From: Arthrobacter sp. MYb214
Lineage (GTDB): Bacteria; Actinomycetota; Actinomycetes; Actinomycetales; Micrococcaceae
Length of the DNA: 64,000 nucleotides
Assembly: GCF_002979865.1 (NCBI RefSeq)
Contig: NZ_PCPZ01000001.1
Location: 1 to 64,000, forward strand
Reading direction: 5' to 3'
Position numbers and translations under genes: made by a program
Part shown: piece after piece, positions 30,262 to 48,979 of the stretch
Position numbering within the stretch: the first letter of the stretch is position 1
Layout of the letters: each line of letters begins with the position of its first letter
Notes under the pieces: model-generated
Told to the model about the DNA's origin: nothing
Database searches by the model: none
Seen by the model: only the letters and a program-made list of their open reading frames with translations

Positions 30262-31890
30262 ATGTCTTCAGGTCAAAACACAGGCGTGATTGATTCGACG
30301 CTGCCGTCGCACCCCACCGAGGTCCACGCAAATAGCTGGATGTGGGGATCCGTGGCGTTGGTCGCCAGAGTTCCGGCATCTTCGATCACGGAACCTGATG
30401 GAAACTTGTGGTGGGTCCCGTCGAATGCCGCGGATATCACGTGGAAGATGTTCTGCAAAGATCTGCAAAGCGAAACTTCTGAGTTTCTCCAAAACGACGC
30501 GGGAAATCTGCATAAAGCATCAAAAAGCTGGTTCGACAAGACTTCGGTCGGACCTCATTTCCTGGCCATGACTGCCGACGCGAAGCAAGCACTATCGGGT
30601 GCTCCAACGTTTGCTTTCGACAACCAGAAGGTAATCAGCAAGCTGACCGGCGCCGGTATCCGGATCGCTGGAATTTCACGTTCTCGTAGTGAGGCGGAAA
30701 CAGGAGCCGGCAACGCTGAATACGTCGCCTTGCACCTGAAGCTTTCGAAAGAGGCATTGCAAACCCCCGGTTGGGTGACCTCTGCGTTGCACCGGCCGAC
30801 TCGTGCTGGGCTACTGCCGGGCACAAACATCGATGGCAAGGACTTGCGAGCGGGTGTAAACAACGCCTTGCGTTCAGCAGGCTTGGCAGTAGAACTGAAT
30901 AATGGCGGCGCTCTGCAATCAAAAGACAAGCAGGATCCATGGGGGAACATCTATACGATCTCCACTTTTATTCCGCAAGACAAGATTCCTCAGTGCCAAA
31001 AACACTGGCACGGACCGAGCGCGATGGACAACCCTGCAGTGCGCTGGGCGCATGCACTGAGCATTGCTCAAACCGCCACGCCTAAGCCAACTTTGAGCGA
31101 CTGGTCCGACCTCGGAGTTAGCAAAGCCCAAGTCTCCCTTGGCCCGTCAATTGGTTGGTGCAGTGATCGGGGGATGGGGATTGTTGCCCAGTCCCGTCCG
31201 GATGGCGATCCTGAACACTGGATCGCAGAGACTGGGCATACGGTGGCCTTAGCGCATTCAGTCTTCGTCGATTTGGCGGTCTTGACGATGCAGCAAGATG
31301 AATTCTTGACCCAGCGCGCGGCACACCTGGCCAATCTAGCGGCAACCGGAAACCTTGAGGATTCCGCTGCTTCGCTTAAGCGATACAAGGACATTCAAAA
31401 AAGGTTTATCGAGTTCCACGGCAAGCGCTGGTTGCAGGAGATACCCGGACGTGAATCTGCAACTCGGGTGCTGCAAGCCATGCAGAACGTGCGCATGCTG
31501 GAAGAAAGAATCAAGCATTCACTGATCGAACAGAAATCCATCATGGATTATCTGGAAGCCAACCAGCGCGCCGAAGAAGAGCAGGTGAATCGCGAACGAG
31601 CCGAACAACTGCGCGAAGAGGCGGTTAAGCGTGAGAAGTTCAGTCACCGAGTGAATATTTTTGCGTTTATATTCCTGCCGGCCACACTGATTTTCACCGT
31701 TACCGGAGGTCTGGGGATCCAGTTATCCACACTTTGGGGAACTATTTGGATCGGCATCGCTGCTGTCACTACTATCGGGTTGATTGCTTGGATGAAGACG
31801 GAAGATGGAAAGAGGAAGAAGGATAGAAAACGCGCGTCCGGAGGCGCATCGCGCAGCGACGAATCCCTCCCTGCCGTGAGCAAGGGATAA
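30262..31890 (+). CDS. Uncharacterised membrane protein with CorA-like C-terminal topology
   Basis: This 542-residue protein matches no family that I can name. The N-terminal 400 residues are soluble with no signal peptide (tryptophan-rich start NSWMWGSVALVARV). A long helical, probably coiled-coil stretch (about 400-460, rich in Glu, Gln and Arg) leads into two membrane helices (about 463-486 and 490-511), with FIFLPATLIFTVTGGLG between helix and turn, then a basic tail. A large cytoplasmic part, a long helix and two C-terminal membrane helices recall CorA-type channels, although the GMN motif is absent (TGG instead). It stands alone with a strong terminator downstream. A channel or signalling effector role is inference only. 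Confidence 0.7.
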   Translation: MSSGQNTGVIDSTLPSHPTEVHANSWMWGSVALVARVPASSITEPDGNLWWVPSNAADITWKMFCKDLQSETSEFLQNDAGNLHKASKSWFDKTSVGPHFLAMTADAKQALSGAPTFAFDNQKVISKLTGAGIRIAGISRSRSEAETGAGNAEYVALHLKLSKEALQTPGWVTSALHRPTRAGLLPGTNIDGKDLRAGVNNALRSAGLAVELNNGGALQSKDKQDPWGNIYTISTFIPQDKIPQCQKHWHGPSAMDNPAVRWAHALSIAQTATPKPTLSDWSDLGVSKAQVSLGPSIGWCSDRGMGIVAQSRPDGDPEHWIAETGHTVALAHSVFVDLAVLTMQQDEFLTQRAAHLANLAATGNLEDSAASLKRYKDIQKRFIEFHGKRWLQEIPGRESATRVLQAMQNVRMLEERIKHSLIEQKSIMDYLEANQRAEEEQVNRERAEQLREEAVKREKFSHRVNIFAFIFLPATLIFTVTGGLGIQLSTLWGTIWIGIAAVTTIGLIAWMKTEDGKRKKDRKRASGGASRSDESLPAVSKG

Positions 31891-35088: not shown

Positions 35089-35842
35089 AGGGTTGCTCTT
35101 TTCACCATTCAATGATTACCAAAGTGTTCAGCAACTACCAAGCTCAAACGGAGAAAACACGCAACCTTTATCAGATTGAGATTTATTTTTACTTTGCAGG
35201 TCAGACCGGGTACTCAAATTAGTAGTTGAAGGTCGTAGTGAATCTTCTCGACGTCCCGGGGTGAGGCGGGGCAGTCTCCGGGGCTCGATGCCGCGGAGCT
35301 CTTCGGTGGATGTGGAGCTCCCGAGGCGCAGTGCCATTGCTTCTGTACTGGCCCCGGGGTCGGCAGGATTGTTCCAGGCCGGTTTCTGCCAAGCCTTTCG
35401 GGTGCCGCGGGCGAGCGGGGGTGCCGAAGCCGCTGTCGCAGAGCATCGACCTTCATTGCTGTCCGCTAGGGCCTGAATCGTGAATTTGGCAGGTGACAAG
35501 CACGTTTAATCCATGGGCAAAGAAGTGCACCGATTGCTTCATTTTCAGCCAAATTTATTTCCTTCCATTTGCTGGCACAAAGCCGAATGCCGGCGTAGGA
35601 TGTCGGCATATCGTTGTCTTGAATTGGGGGATTTAAAGACGAATTGAAACACTCGCATTCATTTCGCATCTTTAGATGCATTGGGGAACTTATCCTGAGC
35701 AGTTGAGCCACATGGGGTGGCTGAATCATGGGCCAGGCTTTCATTATCTGAGGTCAAAGCCTTACTATAGCTCGCTCTTTTTCGGGTGGATCGCTCCTGC
35801 ACGCCGCGCGATCCACTCAGGACATTCTTGTATGGGGGAGAA
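35089..35842. other. Long untranslated region upstream of the giant surface protein
   Basis: About 750 bp hold no gene that I can support. The part nearest the surface-protein gene (35460-35780) is clearly AT-richer than the flanks. GTGGATCGC (35786-35794) and GCGATCCAC (35808-35816) form a perfect 9-bp hairpin ending 26 nt before the ATG, close to the ribosome site GGGGGAG (35834-35840). A long regulated leader is possible. I recognise no known riboswitch class. Confidence 0.5.
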
Positions 35843-38800
35843 ATGTCTAGGCATCAAAGGCGTGGCACTTTTGTGCCAAATTTGCGCCGTAAAACAGCTT
35901 TAAACAGATTATTAAAAGGATGCTTGGCGATAATTTCGTCGATTTCCTTGTGCTTTGTCATGACCATTCCGGGCATGGCAGTTGCTGCCGAAGCTTCTGT
36001 TGGGGAAGAAGTCGAGGCCAAACAGCAGGGGACTGAACCGGAGAACTCTGAATCGGTCCTGGCCACCGGCTCGGCCGAGGAAACCAAGGCCGAAGCCGAC
36101 GAATCGTCCACGGCTGACACGGGGGAAGAACAGCCAGCTGCCGAAGCAGTAGACAGCGCCAAGACCTCGGCGCCAGAGGAAGAAGCAGCGGCCGAACCCG
36201 AGTCCGCCCCTGCACCGGCACCGGCAACTCAGAAGCCAGAAAAGCCAAAAGCTGTGGAAACCACGCAGCCGGCACCCGAAGCGCAACCTGTGGAATCAGC
36301 TGCGCCCAAGACAGAGAAGAAGCCAGTGGACAAGGCTTCACCGGAACTTGCGCAGCCGAAGGCCGAAGTTTCGGAATCGGAAGATTCTACCGGGTCCTCG
36401 ACAGCGGCCCGCGAGCCGATCACGGCCGCTGCCCTTGAGTCAGGTGCTCCGCGGATTTGCGAGTACAACGAAGGAGACGGCTCGGTCGACACCTTCATGC
36501 AGAAGTCCGATGAGATGCCCACCTTCGCCAACGGCAATGTCCACGACGGGCTCTATGAGGGCGGTGTGGTTCACCAGCGCTTGGAAATGACATTGCCCGC
36601 AGGCGAAAACGAGCTGGTCATCAATTACCAGGTCAAGCAGGCCGGCAAATGGGCCTATGACTATTTGCTCAACGAGACAGTGGACGGCGCGAACATCACC
36701 GGCTGGACTGTCGATGAAGGCGCCGGGAACGACCGCGTCGACACCGTCTTCATCACATTGATGGTCGACGGAGAAGAAGGCGACGAGTCAAGCGTCACCC
36801 TCTACTTCGATGCGCATATCGCCTCGGAGCTGGATCACGGCCCGGGTACCGGCGCTTCCTCAATCAACGGTTCGCCGTACCACGTCCTGATCTCGTCGTT
36901 GAACTGCAAGTCCGTTGGCCAACGCGATAACCAGATCCAGGCCGGGGCGGTCCAAGCAGGTTTCGTGACCGTCATCAAGGACGCGGTTCCTGCCGATGGC
37001 ACTGATTTCGGGTTCACCCTCGCCGAGGACCGCTTCGGTGACTCGACGGCATTCAACCTCGATGACAGCGCCGATTCCGATACCGGTGCGAGCCTGCCAG
37101 ATCGCGTTACCTACACCGTGGCGCCATCTACGGTAACCATTACTGAAGTAGACCTGCCAGCTGGCTGGAATCTTTCCTCGATCGCCTGCACCGGCGCCGC
37201 CGCCATCCGCAGCGGTTCGGCCATCACCTTCGAGCTGGGCGACAACGATGAAGTCACCTGTACCTTCACCAATACGAAGACCACCTACGACGAGCTCACG
37301 GTCCACAAGGATGTGCAGGCATCCTATGACCGCGACTACGACTGGGATCTGGACAAGTCGCTGGCCCAGGGCCAGCAAGCCACAGTGAAGGCCACGGCCA
37401 CCGGAGTGGACGTCGACTACAACGTGGTCGCCACCGCCAGCGAGGCCCAGGACAGCAACTTCCAGCTCTCCGGCACCATTACCGTGATGAACCCGAATGA
37501 CACAGAGATGTCCGGGATCACGCTGGCCGACCAGCTCGATGGCGCCAATTGCGTCATCTCCGCTGGCGGATCGCCGATCGCCAATCCGGTGACCATCCAG
37601 CCCGGCGAGAATTCCTTCACCTATGAATGCGACCTTCCCGAGGGAACCAGTGCCGCCAGCGCCGGCACCAACACGGTGAGTGCAACCTGGGACCCGGAGG
37701 CCTACTATGGCACCGATGGCCAAGCCAGCGCCTCGGCCGACTACGATTTCGCGTCCGTCTCGCCAACGGTGACCGACGATGAAGTCACCGTTACCGATAG
37801 CGAAATCGACCTTTCGGGCATCGCCGGCGGTAACACCGTTACAGCCGGGGAAAGCCCGAAGTCCTTCGCGTACACCATCGAGTGGGACGGCGTGCTCGGA
37901 GAATGCACCGACTACCAGAACATCGCCAGCCTCGCCGCAGACGACGGCGAAACGCTGACCGACAATGCCACCGTGGAAGTCTGTATCGGCCAGGACCTGG
38001 CCATCGAGAAGCTGGTCGTGTCCAGTTTCAACCGCAGCTACGACTGGAGCATCGCCAAGGACGCAGTAGGCGAGCAGCCATTCACCGCGGATCCGGAAAC
38101 CGGCGAATTCACCGCGCAATACTCCGTCACTGTCACTCCCGAAAGCTATTCGGACAGCGACTGGGCCATGAGCGGAACCATCACGGTATCCAACCCGAAT
38201 GACTGGCAAGCCATTGACGTGACCGTCACCGACCAGGTCGATGTGGGCGGGGACGCAACCTGCCAGGTGGTCGGCATTGCCGGCGAACCGGACACGCTGG
38301 ACGCCGATCCGGTGGCACCGGGCTTCCAGGCAACACTGGATGCCTCCCAAACACTGACCTTCAGCTACAGCTGCACCTTCGGATCGCAGCCGAATTACGA
38401 GGGCAGCAACACCGCCGAAGTGACGTGGTCCTCCAGCGAGGCCTCCACCGCTTCGGGCAGCGCCACCGAAGTTGTACCGGTGGATGCAGGCGACTGGACG
38501 CAGACACCACTGAACCAGACGGTGACCGTGACCGACCCGCTGCATGAATTCGATCCGGCCTGGACCATCAATTACTCCGATGGACCGCAGACTCGGACCT
38601 ATGAATACACCTGGACGGTGGAGGAAGCCGGCAAGTGCCAGAGCTTCATGAACACCGCCACGATCACCGGAAGCAACCAGCTGGTCAAGAGCGATGACGC
38701 CCAAGTCGAAGCGTGCCGCCAGGCAGGGCTGACCGTCACCAAGGACGTGACAGCCTCCTATGACCGCACCTATTTGTGGAGCATCGACAAGCAGCTGGCC

Positions 38801-41800
38801 GAGGGCCAATCGCCAGATGCCGTCGTCGAGGAAGACGGAACCGCCACCGTTCACTACACGGTGCTGGTGGACAATACCGGCTACGAGGATTCCGGGCAGC
38901 AGCTTTCCGGGTCCATTACCGTGGCCAATCCCAACGAATTCGAAGACCTCGAAGTGACGATCAGCGACGAGAATACCCTCTCGGCCGCCTGCACCATCAT
39001 TGCCGAGGACACGAATCCGGGAATGGAAGGCATGCAGCAGGTGGTGCCGCGCAGCGGCTCGATCACCGTGGACTACAACTGCGATGCATCGGCCGTGGCG
39101 GAGGCCGACTACACCGGCCACACCAACACCGCGGTGGTCACCTGGGGTGATGGGCTGCAGGCTGAGAGCCAGCCGGTACCCATCGAATTCACCCTGGATG
39201 AGAGCACCGATGAATCAGTTGGCGTCTGGGATGACCAGGCTGATCCTTCCGGGGACCCGGTACTGCTGGGCACGGTCCACTACGCCGACGCCCCGCAGAG
39301 CTTCAGCTACGAGATCACCTACGAAGTGCCGCGTGATGAATGCCTGGTCTTCACGAATACCGCGTGGGTGGATCTGGCCGGCGAGGACATCGAGGACTCG
39401 CAGGACGTGGGCATCTGCGACCAGAAGAATCTGGTTATCACCAAGGACGTGGACGCCAGCTACGCACGCGACTACGACTGGTCGCTTCACAAGCAGGTGG
39501 ACCGCAGCGAATTCACGGTCGCCGGCAACGGCACGGTCACCGCGCACTACACGGTAGTGGCCACCGCCGGCGAAGCGCAGGACAGCGCGAAGCAGGTGTC
39601 CGGGACCATCACCATCAGCAACCCGAACACGCAAGTCGGGGACCTGGCGGCCACGGTCACCGATGTGCTCTCCATCCCGTCGGCCAGCTGCACCATCGAG
39701 GGCACCGATGCGGATGGAAGCGCCGGCGGTTTCCAGCTCGTGCTCGGTGACAGGGAAAGCACCACCCTGGGCTACAACTGCCAGGTCCCGGCGGACACCG
39801 ACATCACCGCCCAGTACACGAACACCGCAACCGTGGCCTGGGGCCAGGAGCGCCAAGCTGAAACGGACGTCGATTTCGGGTTCGAGCAGGCCCTGCTGAC
39901 CGACGGCGAAGTCGCCATCACCGATGACCAAACCGTAGAAGGCCAGGAAGTGGTGCTGGGCACCGCGATGGCCGGGGAATCGCCGAAGGCCTTCGAATAC
40001 GACCTGGAACTGCAGGGCGTGGCCGGAACCTGCACCGAGTACACCAACACCGCGGTGCTCGATGAGGCCACCGGCGAGGGCAAGGAGAACACGGCTTCGG
40101 CCAGCACCACGGTGTGCGCCGGAGCAGATCTGGATATCGCCAAGAACGCCGTGACCTCCTTCGACCGCTCCTACCTGTGGTCGCTGGACAAGGAACTGCT
40201 CTCCGGGCAACCGCTGGCAGCCAACCCGAATACCGGCGAAGCCACCGCGAACTACCGGATCACCGTGACCCCCGAAGGCCACGAGGACGGCAATTGGGCA
40301 ATGAGCGGAGAAATCACGCTGGCCAACCCGAACGACTGGCAGGACGCGCCGGTCACGGTGCAGGACTTCGCCGATGTCGGCGGGGACGTGGCCTGCACGA
40401 TCACCGGGGTGCAGGGCGAAGCGGTGGCTGACATGTCCGCCGAGCAAGCCGGCTTCCAGACGGTGATCCCCGCAGGGGCCCAATGGGTGATGGCCTACTC
40501 GTGCACCTTCGCATCCCAACCGGACTACGAAGGCAGCAACACCGCCACCGTGGACTGGGACGCCCAGGCGCTGAGCACGGCCAATAGCCAGGACTCGGAC
40601 ACCGTGGGGATCTCGGAACAGGACTGGAACCAGACGCCGCTGAACGACACGGTCACCATCACGGACAGCGCCCACGAGTTCGATCCGGCGTGGACAGTGG
40701 ATGTGGCCGATGGGCCGCAAAGCCGGGACTACTCGGTGACGTGGAACGTGGAGGAGGCAGGCACCTGCCAGGTCTTCGAGAACGTCGCCACACTCACCGG
40801 CGATGACGGCTTCACCGCGACGGACAATGCGCTCGCCGAAGCCTGCCGCGAGGCGGCCTTGGAGATCAGCAAGACCGTCGAAGCCGCGTACGACCGCACC
40901 TACCAATGGCAGATCGACAAGTCCTTGGCCGAAGGCCAAGACCAGGAGATCACCACCAACGGGGCGGCCAGCGAACCGGTGGACTACGTGGTCAAGGTGG
41001 AGAACACCGGGTATGAGGATTCGGGATGGGTGCTGGAAGGCCAGATCACCATCACCAACCCGAACCAGTACACGGGCATCGACGCCACGATCCAGGACGT
41101 GGTCGATCTGGACGCGGTCACCTGCACCACCTCTGAATCGCTGGTGGGCATCCCGGCCAACGGGACGATCACCGTCGGCTACAGCTGCGATGTCTCCGCG
41201 GGAGTCGATCCCGGCTCCTACAGCGGCGGCACCAACACCGCCACGGTCAGTTGGGGCGATGACCGGGCATCGAGCACGCAGGTGCCCATCGAATTCGCCA
41301 TTGATTCCCACATCGATCGGCAGGTCGAGATCTGGGATGACCAGTCGAATCCCCAGGAGCCGGTGCTGCTGCGCACCGTGGACATCGATGATTCGCCGGT
41401 GCTCATCGAGTACCAGCTGGAGCATGATGCTCCGGCCGGTGAATGCATGAGCTACACGAACACCGCCTGGGTCGATATCCAGGCAGGGGAGGATCCGAGG
41501 GATGAGGCGACCGTGCAGCTATGCGGCTTGCTCGATCTGATGATTGCCAAAGATGCCGAAGCCAGCTTCGATCGGACCTACCTGTGGGACCTGGAGAAGA
41601 AGGTTGACCGCACCGAAACCATCGTTGCCGAGGACGGCACCGCCGACTTCTCCTACACCGTGTCGGCCATCCCGGACGGAGCGGAGGATTCCGGCCATGA
41701 AGTGCACGGAATGATCGTGCTGGTGAATCCGAACCGCTTCGCAGCAGCCTCGACGGTAGCCACCATCACCGATGAGATCAGCATCGAAGGGGTCACGTGC

Positions 41801-43828
41801 ACCATCGACGCCGAGGACGCCGATCCGCAAACCGGGGGCCTGCAAGTCGCGGTCCCGGTGGGCAGCGACGGAACCGGCGCCACGGTGCAGCTGCCTTACA
41901 GCTGCTCGGGCACCCCCGGCCAGCTGCACGGCAGCAACACGGTTACGGCAACCTGGGGCGAGGGTTCGGTGGCCACGTCAACCGCACCGGTGGACTACCT
42001 GCTGGATGCGGAAACCGATCAGCAGGTCACCGTCATCGATGACAAGACCAATCCCGAGTCGCCGGTAGTGCTGGGCGAAGCGATCTGGAATGCCGAAGGC
42101 ACCCCGGTCGACTTCGACTACACCCTGCGCCACCAGGCCCAGGCCGGCACCTGCACCGAGTTCACCAACACCGCGGTGATCCAGCAGACCGGGGCCGAGG
42201 ATTCGACCACCGTCACCCTCTGCGGACAGAAGGCCCTGGGCCTGCAGAAGACCGCGCAGGGACTGGTGGATCTGGATTACGAATGGGAGGTGGAGAAGCG
42301 GATCGACCAGAGCAAGCTCACCGCGAACGGGGATGGAACCTTCACCGCGCACTACTGGGTTCAGGCTCGCAACACCGCAGCCGTTGAGCAGAACTTGCGG
42401 CTGGCCGGTGAAGTGATGGTGCAGAACCCGAATGATTTCGGTTCCATCACCGCCACCTTGGAAGACCGGAGCGATACCGCTGGCACCAGCTGCCGGATCG
42501 ATATGGAAGATGCCGATGAAGCGGCCGCTGGATTGCAGGTCGTGCTCGATGCCGGGGAGAACTTGGGGGCCCGGTATGAATGCGACCTCGCTAGCTGGCT
42601 CTCCACCGATGCCTTCGAAGGAGCAGTCAATACGGTGATTGCCACCTTCGATGACCGCGAAGTGCGTGCCGAGGCACCGATCGGCTTCACGATCGATGCA
42701 GTCACGGACGAATCGGTGAGAGTCACCGACGACATGATGGATCCTGGCGCCGAACCGAAGGTGCTCGGAGAAGTCCACGTCCAGCAAGCTCCCATGCAGT
42801 TCGAATACGAACAGGTGCTGGAACCCGAAGCGGGAACCTGCACGGTATACACCAATACCGCGGCAGTGCATGAGAGTACCGACGGCAACGGCAAGGACGA
42901 ATCCTCGGTGGACCTGCAACTGTGCATTGAGCAGGGCCTGATGATCGCCAAGAGCGCCGCCGCCCAGTACGTCAGGGACTACGATTGGTCGGCCCGCAAG
43001 GAGGCGAAGGAAACGAAGTTCGAGGTTGACCCGGACGGGCAGGCCACGGCCAAGTACACGGTCCAGGCGATGCTGGAGGGCTACGAAGACCAGGACTTCA
43101 CCGTCACCGGTGAGATCACCGTGGCCAATCCGAATGACTTCAAGGACACGCAAGTGCTCCTGGAAGACAAGCTATCCATCGCCGGGGCCAGCTGCTCCAT
43201 CGAAGGATTGGCGGAGGGGAAGCTGGAGCTTGCGGCCGGGGAAACCCGCACCGTGAAGTACAGCTGCACCTTCGAAACACCTGTTGCCGAGGCCGACTAC
43301 ACCGGCCACGAGAACACGGTGAACGCCAGCTGGACCGACGTGGAGGGGACAACCCGCACGGTCAGTGCCAAGGCTCCGCTGGAATTCGAGGCGGCAACGG
43401 CCACCGATGAAATGGTGACGGTCTTCGATGACTACACCAATCCCGGCCAGCCGCGGGAACTGGGCACGGCCAAGGCCGAAGAACAGAGCAAGAAGTTCAC
43501 GTACGAACTGGTCTTGGACGGCGTAGCCGGCAAGTGCCAGACGATGACGAATACGGCCTCGATACCGGAGAAGTCCGGCGAGGATGGGAACAATTCGGAT
43601 TCGGCGGACGTGGAAGTTTGCTCCGAGGCTCCGCAGGCAGCGCCACCGGCACCACCGGTTCCTCCGGCTCCGCCAGCGCCGGCAGCGCCGGCAGCACCAC
43701 CTGCCCCGCCAGCACCGCTTGCGGCAACCGGCCTTGACCAGGGCTCGTTGTGGCTGGCAGGGGCTGCAGGGATGGTGATTATCGCCGGAGCATTGATCCT
43801 GCTTCGGTACCGTCGCCGGAACCCATAG
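35843..43828 (+). CDS. Giant repeat-containing, sortase-anchored surface protein (2661 aa)
   Basis: A secreted cell-wall protein. Residues 1 to about 50 are a long signal peptide with a basic N-region and hydrophobic core (LAIISSISLCFVMTIPGMAVAA). Residues about 50-205 are low-complexity Glu/Ala/Pro/Thr, likely a flexible stalk. About 205-480 include a unique domain and a collagen-binding-B/prealbumin-like strand set ending EVTCTFTNTK. From about 484 to 2592 come nine repeats of roughly 234 residues, each opening with a motif like LxIxKDVxASYDRDYDWSLDK. A Pro/Ala stalk leads to LAATG (2626-2630), a membrane helix and RYRRR, a class E (LAxTG) sorting signal. ATG 35843 follows GGGGGAG. An adhesin or fibre role is inferred. 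Confidence 0.85.
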   Translation: MSRHQRRGTFVPNLRRKTALNRLLKGCLAIISSISLCFVMTIPGMAVAAEASVGEEVEAKQQGTEPENSESVLATGSAEETKAEADESSTADTGEEQPAAEAVDSAKTSAPEEEAAAEPESAPAPAPATQKPEKPKAVETTQPAPEAQPVESAAPKTEKKPVDKASPELAQPKAEVSESEDSTGSSTAAREPITAAALESGAPRICEYNEGDGSVDTFMQKSDEMPTFANGNVHDGLYEGGVVHQRLEMTLPAGENELVINYQVKQAGKWAYDYLLNETVDGANITGWTVDEGAGNDRVDTVFITLMVDGEEGDESSVTLYFDAHIASELDHGPGTGASSINGSPYHVLISSLNCKSVGQRDNQIQAGAVQAGFVTVIKDAVPADGTDFGFTLAEDRFGDSTAFNLDDSADSDTGASLPDRVTYTVAPSTVTITEVDLPAGWNLSSIACTGAAAIRSGSAITFELGDNDEVTCTFTNTKTTYDELTVHKDVQASYDRDYDWDLDKSLAQGQQATVKATATGVDVDYNVVATASEAQDSNFQLSGTITVMNPNDTEMSGITLADQLDGANCVISAGGSPIANPVTIQPGENSFTYECDLPEGTSAASAGTNTVSATWDPEAYYGTDGQASASADYDFASVSPTVTDDEVTVTDSEIDLSGIAGGNTVTAGESPKSFAYTIEWDGVLGECTDYQNIASLAADDGETLTDNATVEVCIGQDLAIEKLVVSSFNRSYDWSIAKDAVGEQPFTADPETGEFTAQYSVTVTPESYSDSDWAMSGTITVSNPNDWQAIDVTVTDQVDVGGDATCQVVGIAGEPDTLDADPVAPGFQATLDASQTLTFSYSCTFGSQPNYEGSNTAEVTWSSSEASTASGSATEVVPVDAGDWTQTPLNQTVTVTDPLHEFDPAWTINYSDGPQTRTYEYTWTVEEAGKCQSFMNTATITGSNQLVKSDDAQVEACRQAGLTVTKDVTASYDRTYLWSIDKQLAEGQSPDAVVEEDGTATVHYTVLVDNTGYEDSGQQLSGSITVANPNEFEDLEVTISDENTLSAACTIIAEDTNPGMEGMQQVVPRSGSITVDYNCDASAVAEADYTGHTNTAVVTWGDGLQAESQPVPIEFTLDESTDESVGVWDDQADPSGDPVLLGTVHYADAPQSFSYEITYEVPRDECLVFTNTAWVDLAGEDIEDSQDVGICDQKNLVITKDVDASYARDYDWSLHKQVDRSEFTVAGNGTVTAHYTVVATAGEAQDSAKQVSGTITISNPNTQVGDLAATVTDVLSIPSASCTIEGTDADGSAGGFQLVLGDRESTTLGYNCQVPADTDITAQYTNTATVAWGQERQAETDVDFGFEQALLTDGEVAITDDQTVEGQEVVLGTAMAGESPKAFEYDLELQGVAGTCTEYTNTAVLDEATGEGKENTASASTTVCAGADLDIAKNAVTSFDRSYLWSLDKELLSGQPLAANPNTGEATANYRITVTPEGHEDGNWAMSGEITLANPNDWQDAPVTVQDFADVGGDVACTITGVQGEAVADMSAEQAGFQTVIPAGAQWVMAYSCTFASQPDYEGSNTATVDWDAQALSTANSQDSDTVGISEQDWNQTPLNDTVTITDSAHEFDPAWTVDVADGPQSRDYSVTWNVEEAGTCQVFENVATLTGDDGFTATDNALAEACREAALEISKTVEAAYDRTYQWQIDKSLAEGQDQEITTNGAASEPVDYVVKVENTGYEDSGWVLEGQITITNPNQYTGIDATIQDVVDLDAVTCTTSESLVGIPANGTITVGYSCDVSAGVDPGSYSGGTNTATVSWGDDRASSTQVPIEFAIDSHIDRQVEIWDDQSNPQEPVLLRTVDIDDSPVLIEYQLEHDAPAGECMSYTNTAWVDIQAGEDPRDEATVQLCGLLDLMIAKDAEASFDRTYLWDLEKKVDRTETIVAEDGTADFSYTVSAIPDGAEDSGHEVHGMIVLVNPNRFAAASTVATITDEISIEGVTCTIDAEDADPQTGGLQVAVPVGSDGTGATVQLPYSCSGTPGQLHGSNTVTATWGEGSVATSTAPVDYLLDAETDQQVTVIDDKTNPESPVVLGEAIWNAEGTPVDFDYTLRHQAQAGTCTEFTNTAVIQQTGAEDSTTVTLCGQKALGLQKTAQGLVDLDYEWEVEKRIDQSKLTANGDGTFTAHYWVQARNTAAVEQNLRLAGEVMVQNPNDFGSITATLEDRSDTAGTSCRIDMEDADEAAAGLQVVLDAGENLGARYECDLASWLSTDAFEGAVNTVIATFDDREVRAEAPIGFTIDAVTDESVRVTDDMMDPGAEPKVLGEVHVQQAPMQFEYEQVLEPEAGTCTVYTNTAAVHESTDGNGKDESSVDLQLCIEQGLMIAKSAAAQYVRDYDWSARKEAKETKFEVDPDGQATAKYTVQAMLEGYEDQDFTVTGEITVANPNDFKDTQVLLEDKLSIAGASCSIEGLAEGKLELAAGETRTVKYSCTFETPVAEADYTGHENTVNASWTDVEGTTRTVSAKAPLEFEAATATDEMVTVFDDYTNPGQPRELGTAKAEEQSKKFTYELVLDGVAGKCQTMTNTASIPEKSGEDGNNSDSADVEVCSEAPQAAPPAPPVPPAPPAPAAPAAPPAPPAPLAATGLDQGSLWLAGAAGMVIIAGALILLRYRRRNP
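37292..43620 (+). repeat. Nine tandem DUF11-like protein repeats with period-three order
   Basis: Repeats start at residues 484, 718, 962, 1196, 1429, 1672, 1898, 2131 and 2365 of the surface protein, lengths 234, 244, 234, 233, 243, 226, 233, 234 and about 228. Repeats 2 and 5 are near twins (both contain NPNDW, DVGGD and TPLN, and are about ten residues longer). Repeats 3 and 6 share EGQ, NTGYEDSG and a TNTA ending, and repeats 1, 4 and 7 share a third form. The gene therefore seems to have grown by duplicating three-repeat blocks. Repeats 8 and 9 diverge. Confidence 0.75.
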
Positions 43829-46000: not shown

Positions 46001-46780
46001 GTGACTCCAAGTCAAAGACGTCGCGAAGAACTCGCCGCGTTCCTCAAGGACCGCCGGGCCCGGGCTGACAGGGCTTCCCATGGACTGCCGGAGATCGGAC
46101 GCAGCCGGGTGCGCGGCCTGCGCCGCGAAGAAGTCGCCACCTTGGCCGGCGTTTCTGTTACCTGGTACACCTGGCTTGAGCAGGCCCGCGACATCAATCC
46201 CTCGCGCCAGGTTCTGCAGTCCTTGGCACGGCTGTTCCGGCTCACCCCGGTGGAATCCTCGTACCTGTTTTCTCTGGCAGGGCACGGTGAGCTTGACCCG
46301 ATTGGCACCGGCGGCATGACTCCAGCCCTGCAGCGTTTGCTCGATGCTTTGCAGTTCCCGGCCTTCCTGCTCTCCGCCGACTGGACCATCCTGGGCTGGA
46401 ATGAGGCCTATGAACAGCTGTATCCGCGGGTGGCTTCACTGGACAGCGAAGATCGGAACCTGTTGTGGCTCGTTTTCACCGATGCGCAATTGCGTGAGAT
46501 GCTCCCGGATTGGGAAGTGCAAAGCCGCGGTTTTGTGGGAAGCTTCCGTGCCGAAACGCGTGGATGGCTCAGCCCATCGGGGGACAGCGGCATTGTTGCC
46601 CGGGTCTCGGCGGCCTCCCCGGAATTCGCCGCTATCTGGAATGAACGGGACGTTGCCGGTTTCCGTACTGGTGAACGGGTGTTCCGGCACCCTAAATTGG
46701 GGCTGACGCGCTACGAGCAGCACAACCTGACGCCGACGGAAGCCACGGACTTGACCCTGTTGATGTACACGCCGCGGTAA
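46001..46780 (+). CDS. XRE-family regulator with MmyB-like ligand-binding domain
   Basis: This 259-residue regulator has an N-terminal helix-turn-helix (ELAAFLKDRRARADRASHGLPEIGRSRVRGLRREEVATLAGVSVTWYTWLEQARDINPSRQVLQSLARLFRLT) and a PAS-like MmyB domain (LLSADWTILGWNEAYEQLYP, WLVFTDAQLREMLPDWE). The MmyB type in Actinobacteria usually controls a neighbouring oxidoreductase, but none is adjacent here. GTG 46001 has GAGG eight bases upstream. The 120 bp after it are AT-rich. Confidence 0.86.
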   Translation: MTPSQRRREELAAFLKDRRARADRASHGLPEIGRSRVRGLRREEVATLAGVSVTWYTWLEQARDINPSRQVLQSLARLFRLTPVESSYLFSLAGHGELDPIGTGGMTPALQRLLDALQFPAFLLSADWTILGWNEAYEQLYPRVASLDSEDRNLLWLVFTDAQLREMLPDWEVQSRGFVGSFRAETRGWLSPSGDSGIVARVSAASPEFAAIWNERDVAGFRTGERVFRHPKLGLTRYEQHNLTPTEATDLTLLMYTPR

Positions 46781-46899
46781 TTCGACAGCATTCAAGGATT
46801 AATTTCCAATATTTCATGATCAAGGACCAGATTGGCCATTTATTGTACCATTTAATAAAATGCCGAATTATTCTATGGAAATTTTAGGAAGGTGTGAGC

Positions 46900-48891
46900 G
46901 TGCGAATTAGATGGTTTGAGATTGATAATTATAGGGGAATTAGAAATGCCAAGGCCGAGAACCTTGACGAGAGTCCTTTGGTGCTCATAACTGGGCGAAA
47001 TGGTACCGGGAAAAGTCTGGTTCTGGAAGCAATCGCAGCCGTATGGTCTGGAAATATTAATCTTCCGGATTTGGTGGGACCATATGGGGCTAGTCTCCGA
47101 ATAAGAATTGCCGTGAAACTAGAACAATCTGAGAAAGTGGCAATCGACTCTTGGCGAGATGCAAGGGGGATGAGCCGAGCGGAGCATAAGGCTGAACACC
47201 TTCTAGAAGTTATGTCTTTGAACTCTGAGGAATCTGGCTTCTACTCGGAGCAAGATGAAGTTCTGGAAACACTGATGAATCCAGTCTTTTCTCGATCACA
47301 TCCTTTTACTAGTATCGATCTCCTTTCGGCCAGACGGCAAGTTTCCATTGATACAAGTACATCTGTAGATCTCAAAATGCTAGATCGTACATCGGTAGCT
47401 GATGACCGTCGAAGGATGTACGAACAGGAAATCCGGTGGAAATCTTCCATGCAGATGCCGGATATTGGCACATATCTCACGTCACTGGATTACAGGGATT
47501 TCATTGCAGCGCGTGATGGTCATGCCGAGCGTGGAGAGTATGACCGGCTCGCGGAGATCTTTATGGAAGCAACTGGCAAAGGCATTCTTAAACCTAAGTT
47601 TGATCCGATGGCAGTTGAAACCTTCATTAACGTTCATTTGACGTCCGGTGCAACTCACAGGCTCGAAGACCTATCGAACGGTGAACGTGAGATGTTGGGA
47701 ATGCTGTACTATGTGAGCCAGCTTTCCGCGAACGGCGGGGTGCTGTTGTTGGATGAGCCGGAGAAGCATTTGCATCCATCGCTTCAGCTCGCAGTGCTAA
47801 AAGCAATGATGCATGTAGCTGATAGGGGGCAGCTACTGGTAGTGACGCATTCAGCTAATCTTATTTCCGCGGCACAGATGGACAAGGTGCTTGTGGTAGA
47901 AGGTGCTTGGAATGTCCCTGGTAATCAAATTACGAAGATTATGGATGCCGATGACACGGCCGGATTGCTCGCGGAGCTTGGCGTCACTAAGCGAGAGCTA
48001 TTCCAATTTGATTTCATGGTAGTGATCGAAGGGGAGCATGATAAAGCTCGCTTGAGCTTGGCTTTCCCTGACTACTTCGCCCGGGCGAAGGTAATCGTTG
48101 CGGGGAGTAGGGAAAACGTGTTGAAACTACACGGTTCAATGGAAGCATTAGGACTCCCGATACCTTGGATATGTATTATTGACCGTGATTTTTATCTAGA
48201 AGCTGAATATCGATCCCAGTCAAACAAGGATAATTTGTTTATCTGGAATTTCCGAATGTTTGAAAATGTCTTCCTTGACGCTTCTCTTATAGCGAAGGTT
48301 TTGGAGCCCACAGGTGCCGAGATTGGAGACGTAGAGAGGTTTATGGAGCAACTTGCCGAACAGAATAAAAATGCCTCGTATGATCAATTTGTTGAATATG
48401 GAATCCGCCGCCTACAGGTCAGTTCAACATCAAGTGAAACTCCCAGGAAGGCGATTGATAGGGTTCATGGAAGACTAATTGCTCAGTTCGATGATTTGAG
48501 TTTTAGGGTCGATAATTATTCGGTTATGCGAGGCGAAATTGAAGAATTTATCGATGAACTCTGGAATGATGACTGGCGAAAGGTAGTTTCCGGGAAGAAG
48601 ATTCTTGCGGGTGTGCAGAAAAAATGGAATGCATTCAGTAGTGCCGCACTACTGGTGAACGCCGTCCTGATTAAGTCAAGAGAATCAAGCGAAATGATGC
48701 CGTTGGAAATGACACGTTTATCAGAAAAATTCAAAGAACTTAGCTCCGCCAGAGAGCAGACGGGTAACGTGATTAGTGTAGTTGAAAACGTGGAGTTGGA
48801 TGAATTAGTCAATTCGCGATCTATGTCAATAATGGATCGACCGAAAGGGCTGAACGGAGATGACGAATTCAACAATTCTTACGGTTGCTGA
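46900..48891 (+). CDS. OLD-like ATPase with C-terminal TOPRIM/DUF4435-like nuclease domain
   Basis: This 663-residue protein from GTG 46900 (AGGAAGG seven bases upstream; GTG 46894 is less well placed) has Walker A GRNGTGKS (32-39), signature LSNGEREMLGM (about 258), Walker B VLLLDEPEKHLHPS (about 281-294) and a switch His in VVTHSANLI. A TOPRIM-like domain follows, with IEGEHDKARLSL (about 373), VAGSRENVLK and IIDRDFY (about 427). This ATPase plus TOPRIM order is that of OLD-family nucleases, several of which, with relatives such as GajA, defend against phage. Its base composition is visibly AT-richer than its neighbours and codon use is looser, suggesting acquisition. No partner gene is evident. 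Confidence 0.8.
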   Translation: MRIRWFEIDNYRGIRNAKAENLDESPLVLITGRNGTGKSLVLEAIAAVWSGNINLPDLVGPYGASLRIRIAVKLEQSEKVAIDSWRDARGMSRAEHKAEHLLEVMSLNSEESGFYSEQDEVLETLMNPVFSRSHPFTSIDLLSARRQVSIDTSTSVDLKMLDRTSVADDRRRMYEQEIRWKSSMQMPDIGTYLTSLDYRDFIAARDGHAERGEYDRLAEIFMEATGKGILKPKFDPMAVETFINVHLTSGATHRLEDLSNGEREMLGMLYYVSQLSANGGVLLLDEPEKHLHPSLQLAVLKAMMHVADRGQLLVVTHSANLISAAQMDKVLVVEGAWNVPGNQITKIMDADDTAGLLAELGVTKRELFQFDFMVVIEGEHDKARLSLAFPDYFARAKVIVAGSRENVLKLHGSMEALGLPIPWICIIDRDFYLEAEYRSQSNKDNLFIWNFRMFENVFLDASLIAKVLEPTGAEIGDVERFMEQLAEQNKNASYDQFVEYGIRRLQVSSTSSETPRKAIDRVHGRLIAQFDDLSFRVDNYSVMRGEIEEFIDELWNDDWRKVVSGKKILAGVQKKWNAFSSAALLVNAVLIKSRESSEMMPLEMTRLSEKFKELSSAREQTGNVISVVENVELDELVNSRSMSIMDRPKGLNGDDEFNNSYGC

Positions 48892-48979
48892 TTTGCAGAT
48901 GGTTGGATGCATTTCAGGTGTTGATTGAATTGGTTTCAGGGCGCACCTATAGGGCAGCTAAATGGTTTTGAAAATGCGC

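What the first reader, a model, noticed from the sequence alone, without database searches (positions are those of the whole stretch)
46900..48891. Solitary AT-rich OLD-like ATPase-TOPRIM protein, candidate phage defence
The gene combines an SMC/ABC-type ATPase with a TOPRIM/DUF4435-like domain. Its codon use and composition differ strongly from all neighbours, and it sits at an edge between housekeeping genes (ilvD side and NAD operon side), a place typical for an inserted defence gene. No GajB-like helicase or retron accompanies it.
Basis: partly seen in the sequence, partly recalled or inferred. Interest (0 to 1): 0.55.

Follow-up and report, generated by a model that had tools for sequence, protein, structure and literature searches.

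The report
Single-gene PARIS-type phage defence protein
An AT-rich foreign gene has landed between housekeeping genes of this actinobacterium; it encodes what looks like a one-chain version of the PARIS sensor-plus-nuclease, which probably shuts infected cells down, making it a distant new member of a known defence kind.

Summary
One intact AT-rich ORF (GC3 0.46; six neighbours 0.64-0.80) lies between an HTH regulator beside ilvD and an alpha/beta hydrolase beside nrtR-nadA-nadB-like genes. No orthologue was found in 17 same-genus genomes. The site is nearly empty (42-110 bp) in 3 of 15 genus mates with both flanks and differently filled in 12. The family call needs correcting: the TOPRIM half is nearer to AriB of PARIS than to OLD. 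Best PADLOC model AriAB (128 bits); AriB is the best solved-structure match of that half by profile, Foldseek and VIA-align, with AriB's catalytic E26 on E379; a TOPRIM-half tree splits off the OLD-type rows (98/96). It is a divergent fused AriAB, 50% identical to one orthologue in another family of the class and 31% to one in the order. Likely mechanism: the ABC/SMC ATPase half senses a phage protein and switches on the tethered TOPRIM nuclease, which cuts tRNA or other nucleic acid and arrests the cell. Architecture and conserved sites are shown; trigger, target and defence are inferred. Fused PARIS is already described, so this is a new member of a known kind. The genome carries a second, different fused AriAB.

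The parts
46900..48891 (+). Fused AriA-AriB (PARIS-type) ATPase-TOPRIM gene; best start GTG 46900 (663 aa), an in-frame GTG also at 46894 (665 aa)
46993..47016 (+). Walker A GRNGTGKS (residues 34-41 of the 665-aa frame)
47671..47853 (+). ABC signature LSNGE (47671-47685), Walker B LLLDEP (47743-47760) and H-loop THS (47845-47853); nearest to AriA/PtuA-type and SMC-type ATPases
47989..48759 (+). AriB-like DUF4435/TOPRIM nuclease half, modelled alone (residues 366-622); putative metal-site residues E379, D383, D430, D432, E457
46780..48949 (.). Approximate extent of the inserted AT-rich DNA; the right edge lies in the intergenic region shared with G015. No target repeat or integrase seen
46886..46892 (+). 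Shine-Dalgarno-like AGGAAGG, 7 nt before GTG 46900
   Evidence: read directly

Best explanation
It is a divergent single-chain PARIS-type (AriAB) defence protein acquired horizontally. Shown: one chain with an ABC/SMC ATPase half with complete Walker A, signature, Walker B and H-loop motifs, and an AriB-type DUF4435-like TOPRIM half that keeps the acidic residues; a foreign composition; no orthologue in genus mates; an insertion site with alternative contents. Inferred from PARIS: the ATPase half assembles into an oligomer that holds the TOPRIM halves inactive; a phage protein (in E. coli PARIS, Ocr or Ptr1/Ptr2) binds the ATPase and lets two TOPRIM halves pair; the paired nuclease cuts host tRNA with two metal ions, stops translation and aborts infection. 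Because sensor and effector are one chain, the effector cannot be released as in two-gene PARIS unless the chain is cleaved, so activation should be an in-place rearrangement. That last step is my inference.
For: PADLOC best model AriAB PDLC02981, 127.9 bits, E 1.3e-37, best stretch 244-596, next model AriA 68.3 bits; the TOPRIM half alone hits only that model at E<=1e-5. Pfam AAA_21 65.9 bits (cut-off 27) and AAA_15 59.7 (32.1). Profile of the TOPRIM half and 12 relatives against PDB sequences: the only two hits under E 0.05 are AriB (0.0039, 0.0084), with E26, G27 and D30 of AriB on E379, G380 and D383. Model of the half (pLDDT 83): AriB chains are Foldseek's first two matches and the only ones at probability 1.00 among the 50 listed; VIA-align AriB Z 12.6 over 209 residues, against 9.3 over 165 for the best OLD entry (Xanthomonas) and 8.2 over 126 for T. 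scotoductus OLD. hhalign at matched depth: window half against five AriAB-type sequences E 1.6e-13 to 8.7e-16 in 5 of 5 draws, against five OLD-type sequences 0.072. Tree of 28 TOPRIM halves: the seven OLD-type rows split off at 98/96. Horizontal entry. PARIS mechanism and single-gene fusions: PMC9122126 and PMC12409363 (passages read).
Against: Pfam DUF4435 scores 25.2, just under its cut-off of 27. A 128-bit AriAB score is not decisive alone: L083, whose best model is Old (121.5 bits), also scores 93.8 to that AriAB model. Identity to 12 aligned relatives is only 17-24%. Against the two-gene AriB of Lichenicola (one sequence) the window half gives only E 0.01, no better than against OLD-type profiles (0.015 for the OLD set) in the same script. 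Foldseek's AriB matches are modest (E 1.2e-3 and 4.1e-3, TM 0.41-0.42, rmsd about 10) and the VIA-align rmsd to AriB is 6.5, looser than to OLD (4.5). With the whole chain, retron-Eco8 OLD, GajA and OLD rank 1-9 in Foldseek and AriA 43. The ATPase half does not discriminate: PtuA Z 18.2, AriA 16.9. The whole-chain tree places it beside PARIS-type proteins only weakly (55/49), and the TOPRIM tree carries a long-branch warning at the OLD split. No defence, trigger or cleavage was tested.
Confidence: 0.7

Rival explanations
1. It is a Class 1 OLD nuclease: a solitary ATPase-TOPRIM that acts on DNA (exonuclease/nickase), as in P2 Old and T. scotoductus OLD.
For: Single gene, ATPase plus TOPRIM in one chain, the definition of Class 1 by context (PMC10568477, passages). 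Whole-chain Foldseek: OLD 6p74 E 3.5e-11, GajA 2.1e-11. OLD TOPRIM domains are the next structural matches after AriB.
Against: TOPRIM-half profile: OLD-type E 0.072 against AriAB <=1.6e-13 at equal depth. No OLD sequence appears at E<=10 in the PDB profile search of the TOPRIM half, where AriB leads. Tree split 98/96.
Confidence: 0.14
2. It is an ATPase-TOPRIM of PARIS ancestry whose nuclease targets something other than tRNA (DNA, mRNA, rRNA) and whose trigger is not an anti-restriction protein. This overlaps with the best explanation.
For: Fused AriAB-type proteins are very diverse. In the rows listed by my paper searches I saw no fused AriAB with a biochemical test. P2 Old and GajA, TOPRIM nucleases, cut DNA in vitro (PMC12409363, passages).
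Against: Acidic residues line up with AriB. The closest orthologue lies 4.5 kb from type I RM genes hsdM/hsdS and this genome holds a type ISP RM enzyme; both are only suggestive, as RM genes are common.
Confidence: 0.3
3. It is a non-defence gene, for example a repair or plasmid/chromosome maintenance ATPase-nuclease that was horizontally acquired.
For: The ATPase half also resembles SMC, Rad50 and RecF heads.
Against: The AriB-like TOPRIM half; the gene is patchy and lower in GC than its surroundings in three actinobacterial hosts; the same site holds another AT-rich gene with a PIN-TPR-GreABC match in G005. PADLOC holds defence models only, so its hits do not count against this rival.
Confidence: 0.12

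Closest known systems
PARIS, single-gene fusion form (AriAB; PADLOC PDLC02981)
   Same: ATPase and DUF4435-like TOPRIM in one chain of similar length, same order, same acidic residues
   Different: 17-24% identity to 12 aligned relatives; 128 bits to the model against 366-695 for six of the ten proteins scanned (two more gave 228 and 153); pairs with G908 at 98/95, G1119 unresolved
PARIS, two-gene form of E. coli B185 (AriA + AriB; 8ux9, 8v46)
   Same: ATPase half matches AriA (Z 16.9, 20% id); TOPRIM half best matches AriB
   Different: One chain, so sensor and effector are fixed at 1:1, whereas the AriA hexamer holds three AriB, which are released and dimerise (PMC12409363)
Class 1 OLD nucleases (P2 Old, T. 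scotoductus OLD 6p74)
   Same: Solitary ATPase-TOPRIM chain; distant TOPRIM fold (6p74 Z 8.2)
   Different: Separated in profile comparison and tree
Gabija GajA and other Class 2 OLD; retron-Eco8 OLD
   Same: Same overall chain plan; high whole-chain Foldseek rank; Class 2 OLD TOPRIM domains Z 8.9-9.3
   Different: No helicase or reverse transcriptase gene adjacent
Second fused AriAB of the same genome (PDLC02982 type, G000:C12:165417-167120)
   Same: Fused PARIS-type gene of low GC (0.51) for its surroundings
   Different: Different subtype (220.6 bits to PDLC02982), 568 aa; its Pfam DUF4435 score (40.5) passes the cut-off

Membership tests
PARIS, fused form (AriAB) | AAA_15/AAA_21 ATPase domain above Pfam cut-off | tested here: met
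   59.7 and 65.9 bits against cut-offs 32.1 and 27
PARIS, fused form (AriAB) | Match to a fused ATPase+DUF4435 profile (Rousset et al. used dedicated fusion profiles with thresholds 80 and 20) | tested here: inconclusive
   PADLOC AriAB PDLC02981 127.9 bits, best of that library, but it is not known whether this is the profile of PMC9122126, and an Old-type protein, L083, also scores 93.8
PARIS, fused form (AriAB) | AriB-type catalytic residues | tested here: met
   E26 and D30 of AriB on E379 and D383, and E-N of AriB ENY on E457-N458; invariant in 13 of 13. AriB has E where this protein has D432
PARIS, fused form (AriAB) | TOPRIM half nearer to AriB than to OLD in structure | tested here: met
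   VIA-align Z 12.6 over 209 residues (rmsd 6.5) against 9.3 over 165 (rmsd 4.5); Foldseek first two matches, E 1.2e-3 and 4.1e-3. Predicted model, pLDDT 83
PARIS, fused form (AriAB) | Triggered by an anti-restriction protein; cleaves tRNA; aborts infection | not testable with these tools
   needs experiment
Pfam DUF4435 (PF14491) | Score above the curated cut-off of 27 bits | tested here: not met
   25.2 bits, E 1.6e-5. I therefore do not call it a curated DUF4435 member, only a relative
Class 1 OLD | Solitary ATPase-TOPRIM gene | tested here: met
Class 1 OLD | TOPRIM half groups with OLD sequences | tested here: not met
   hhalign E 0.072 against <=1.6e-13; tree split 98/96. Of the seven OLD-type rows only L083 was tested with PADLOC; the rest carry the label because they group with it
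Gabija (Class 2 OLD) | Adjacent GajB UvrD-like helicase | tested here: not met
   neighbours are a regulator and a hydrolase
Retron with OLD effector (Class 3) | Adjacent reverse transcriptase and ncRNA | tested here: not met
   no reverse-transcriptase gene among the neighbours; no Rfam match in the window, though Rfam may lack some retron RNAs

The most novel reading that the evidence does not exclude
A separate actinobacterial lineage of fused PARIS in which the nuclease is switched on in place, by dimerising halves that stay covalently attached to the ATPase oligomer at 1:1 stoichiometry, possibly with a different RNA target and trigger from E. coli PARIS.
Probability: 0.35. Interest if true: 0.5.

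Novelty: new member of a known kind. Interest (0 to 1): 0.33.

Why it matters
In two-gene PARIS a trigger leads to release and dimerisation of AriB, and its authors say that AriB is activated, not simply released, by a mechanism still unknown (PMC12409363, passages read). A fused version cannot release its nuclease without cleaving the chain, and a review calls it unclear whether fusions form a separate OLD class (PMC10568477, passages read). A solitary 2-kb gene with a 50%-identical orthologue is a convenient case for testing both questions. It also adds a PARIS-type gene to a genome that carries a second one of another subtype.

Tried and rejected
Considered and rejected: Class 1 OLD, Gabija and retron effector (see rivals and membership test); vertical inheritance in the genus (no orthologue in 17 genus mates); a mobile element at the site (no integrase ORF, no clear target repeat; the nearest relative with an empty site is 88% identical in its flanks, so junctions cannot be set to the base). 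A defence hotspot is only hinted at: 1 of 15 relatives with both flanks (G005) holds another conflict-type gene there (PIN-TPR-GreABC, 49.8 bits, gap GC 0.444); PADLOC has no hit for it at E<=1e-8.

Led nowhere: single-protein scan of viral contigs, no match; phages by tblastn, one short hit; PDB search with the TOPRIM half as a single sequence, nothing relevant; promoter-like sites 5 found against 3.4 expected and terminator-like 4 against 1.9; whole-chain tree, weak placement with long branches; whole-chain structure model, pLDDT 68.8 with residues 86-110, 133-186 and 622-665 under 50. In the VIA-align list of the whole-chain model only residues 1-373 were really tested.

Limits: genome searches scored only 2-4 candidates per genome and at most 12, so absences are lower bounds. 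Of the 16 rows of the AriAB-type profile, L080, Burk, L145, L146, L147 and L162 were not tested with PADLOC. Regex trimming misplaced the start of several rows (among them L066, L162, G828). One search's short-AriAB profile kept 2 of 6 sequences; one search used 28 rows after leaving out near-duplicates L080 and Kova, and the same four short rows were missing. (and the query side) ran on an empty window sequence through a name clash and was redone. In one search only candidates over 480 aa were used (35 rows).

Full report
What is there. The window holds one intact + strand ORF ending at 48891 with in-frame GTG codons at 46894 and 46900. The second is the better start: a Shine-Dalgarno-like AGGAAGG lies 7 nt before it, and the closest orthologue starts at the matching residue. 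The protein carries complete ABC/SMC ATPase motifs and, after them, a TOPRIM-type set (EGEHD, DRD, ENVFL); the acidic residues are invariant in 13 of 13 aligned proteins, K40 nearly so.

Foreign composition. GC is 0.462 and GC3 0.462, against 0.573-0.642 and 0.638-0.800 in six neighbours. The neighbours are IlvD and an MmyB-like HTH regulator on the left, and an alpha/beta hydrolase, NrtR, NadA and a NadB-like FAD protein on the right.

Insertion site. No orthologue was found in 17 same-genus genomes; the best match there is a 29% stretch over 151 query residues in an ATPase frame (none at E<=1e-12). The left flank is found in 15 of 17 relatives and the right flank in 17 of 17. In the 15 with both flanks the gap is 42, 42 and 110 bp in three (G014, G016, G015) and 863-4022 bp in twelve. 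Those twelve hold, by my reading of the ORFs, a lipoprotein-like gene alone (4) or with a cation-antiporter-like gene, split in G002 (4), small uncharacterised ORFs (2), a GNAT-like gene (1), and in G005 a 1217-aa gene in a 44% GC gap (1). Of these only the G005 gene and one small ORF were family-tested. The G005 gene matches the PIN domain of the TPR-GreAB-C-PIN system (49.8 bits, cut-off 27.8); its function was not examined here. The right edge of the insert falls in the intergenic region shared with G015.

Distribution. Searches with the protein found it in 1 of 295 genomes of the family, 1 of 396 of a phylum sample and 2 of 396 of an order sample, each count including this genome; few candidates per genome were scored. 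An AriAB-model search of a class sample gave 4 of 394, again including this genome. The nearest relatives are G908 (another family of the class, 312 of 619 residues identical, 50%) and G1119 (same order, 31%); more distant are G828 (26%), a Rhodococcus sp. BH4 plasmid (24%) and G1064 (22%). In G908 the gene lies 4.5 kb from type I hsdM/hsdS genes in a local GC dip. In G1119 it has 57% GC amid ORFs of 63-74%, with an ORF beside it that has an HNH match.

Which family. PADLOC's best model is AriAB (127.9 bits; next AriA 68.3) and the TOPRIM half alone hits only that model. The score is not proof: the Old-type protein L083 (121.5 bits to Old) also gets 93.8 to the AriAB model. Pfam's AAA_21 and AAA_15 pass their cut-offs; DUF4435 scores 25.2, just below 27. 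Profile-profile comparison of the TOPRIM half at matched depth (five sequences each) gives E 1.6e-13 to 8.7e-16 to AriAB-type sequences in 5 of 5 draws, and 0.072 to OLD-type. As a control, OLD-type against AriAB-type gives 3.5e-7 over 68 columns, the shared TOPRIM core. A profile of the half against the PDB brings up AriB first (E 0.0039), with E26 on E379 and D30 on D383 (the inactive E26A mutant is described in PMC12409363, passages read). The model of the half (pLDDT 83) matches AriB ahead of OLD by Foldseek and VIA-align. A tree of 28 TOPRIM halves splits the seven OLD-type rows from all PARIS-type rows at 98/96, with this protein on the PARIS side and paired with G908 at 98/95.

Results against. 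The window half against the single two-gene AriB of Lichenicola gives only E 0.01. Foldseek E-values to AriB are modest (1.2e-3, 4.1e-3; TM 0.41-0.42), and the VIA-align rmsd to AriB (6.5) is looser than to OLD (4.5) though over more residues. On the whole chain, retron-Eco8 OLD, GajA and OLD rank above AriA in Foldseek. The ATPase half is at least as close to PtuA. The whole-chain tree is weak at the relevant node, and the TOPRIM tree carries a long-branch warning. The best NCBIfam match is PtuA, far below its cut-off (49.2 against 500).

How it most likely works. In two-gene PARIS an AriA hexamer holds three AriB copies inactive; phage proteins such as Ocr bind AriA, and AriB is released, dimerises and cuts tRNA (PMC12409363, passages read; PMC9122126, passages read). 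The authors add that AriB is activated and not simply released, by an unknown mechanism. Single-gene fusions were noted in the original report, and a later review calls it unclear whether they work as PARIS or as Class 1 OLD (PMC10568477, passages read). From the homology I infer a sensor ATPase oligomer with attached nuclease halves that pair on triggering and arrest the cell. tRNA as target is the likeliest but untested. The covalent link argues for in-place activation.

Context in the genome. The same genome carries a second fused AriAB of another subtype on contig 12 (568 aa, GC 0.51, 220.6 bits to PDLC02982), 98% identical at protein level to a copy in G014 and without a match at E<=1e-20 in the other 16 genus mates, and a type ISP restriction-modification enzyme about 22 kb from it. 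Neither is linked to the window gene.

Verdict. Real, intact, horizontally acquired, and best read as a divergent fused PARIS-type (AriAB) protein, not a Class 1 OLD. New member of a known kind; moderate interest because the activation of fused PARIS is open and this is a compact test case.

Noticed in passing
G000:C12:165417-167120 (L206:5418-7121): Second fused AriAB (PDLC02982 type) in the same genome, 98% identical at protein level to one in G014, with no match at E<=1e-20 in the other 16 genus mates; G014 also has a 43% identical copy.
   Followed up: partly
G000:C12 about 138666-143222 (L205:6667-11223): Type ISP restriction-modification enzyme (Mrr_cat_2, ResIII, ISP_coupler, Type_ISP_C), at the start of a run of ORFs of 47-53% GC.
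   Followed up: partly
L061:2664-6317 (G005, same chromosomal site): AT-rich 1217-aa gene with a PIN-TPR-GreABC domain fills the same intergenic site in another species; no PADLOC hit at E<=1e-8.
   Followed up: partly
window 30262-31890 (+): 542-aa ORF in a 54-55% GC stretch with no Pfam match at E<=1e-5; another GC dip (0.517) lies at 35-36 kb.
   Followed up: no
window 35786-43828 (+): 2680-aa repetitive ORF with an N-terminal signal-like stretch and a C-terminal proline-rich, LPXTG-like (LAATG) anchor, probably a surface protein (read by eye).
   Followed up: no
L045:6712-8567 (Lichenicola cladoniae plasmid): A two-gene PARIS-like pair (ATP-binding protein + DUF4435 protein, AriB 43.9 bits) lies 2.6 kb from a fused AriAB on the same 28.8-kb plasmid.
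   Followed up: no
L145, L146, L147, L162: Relatives of fused AriAB (685-736 aa) lie on IMG/VR contigs; whether these contigs are truly viral was not checked.
   Followed up: no
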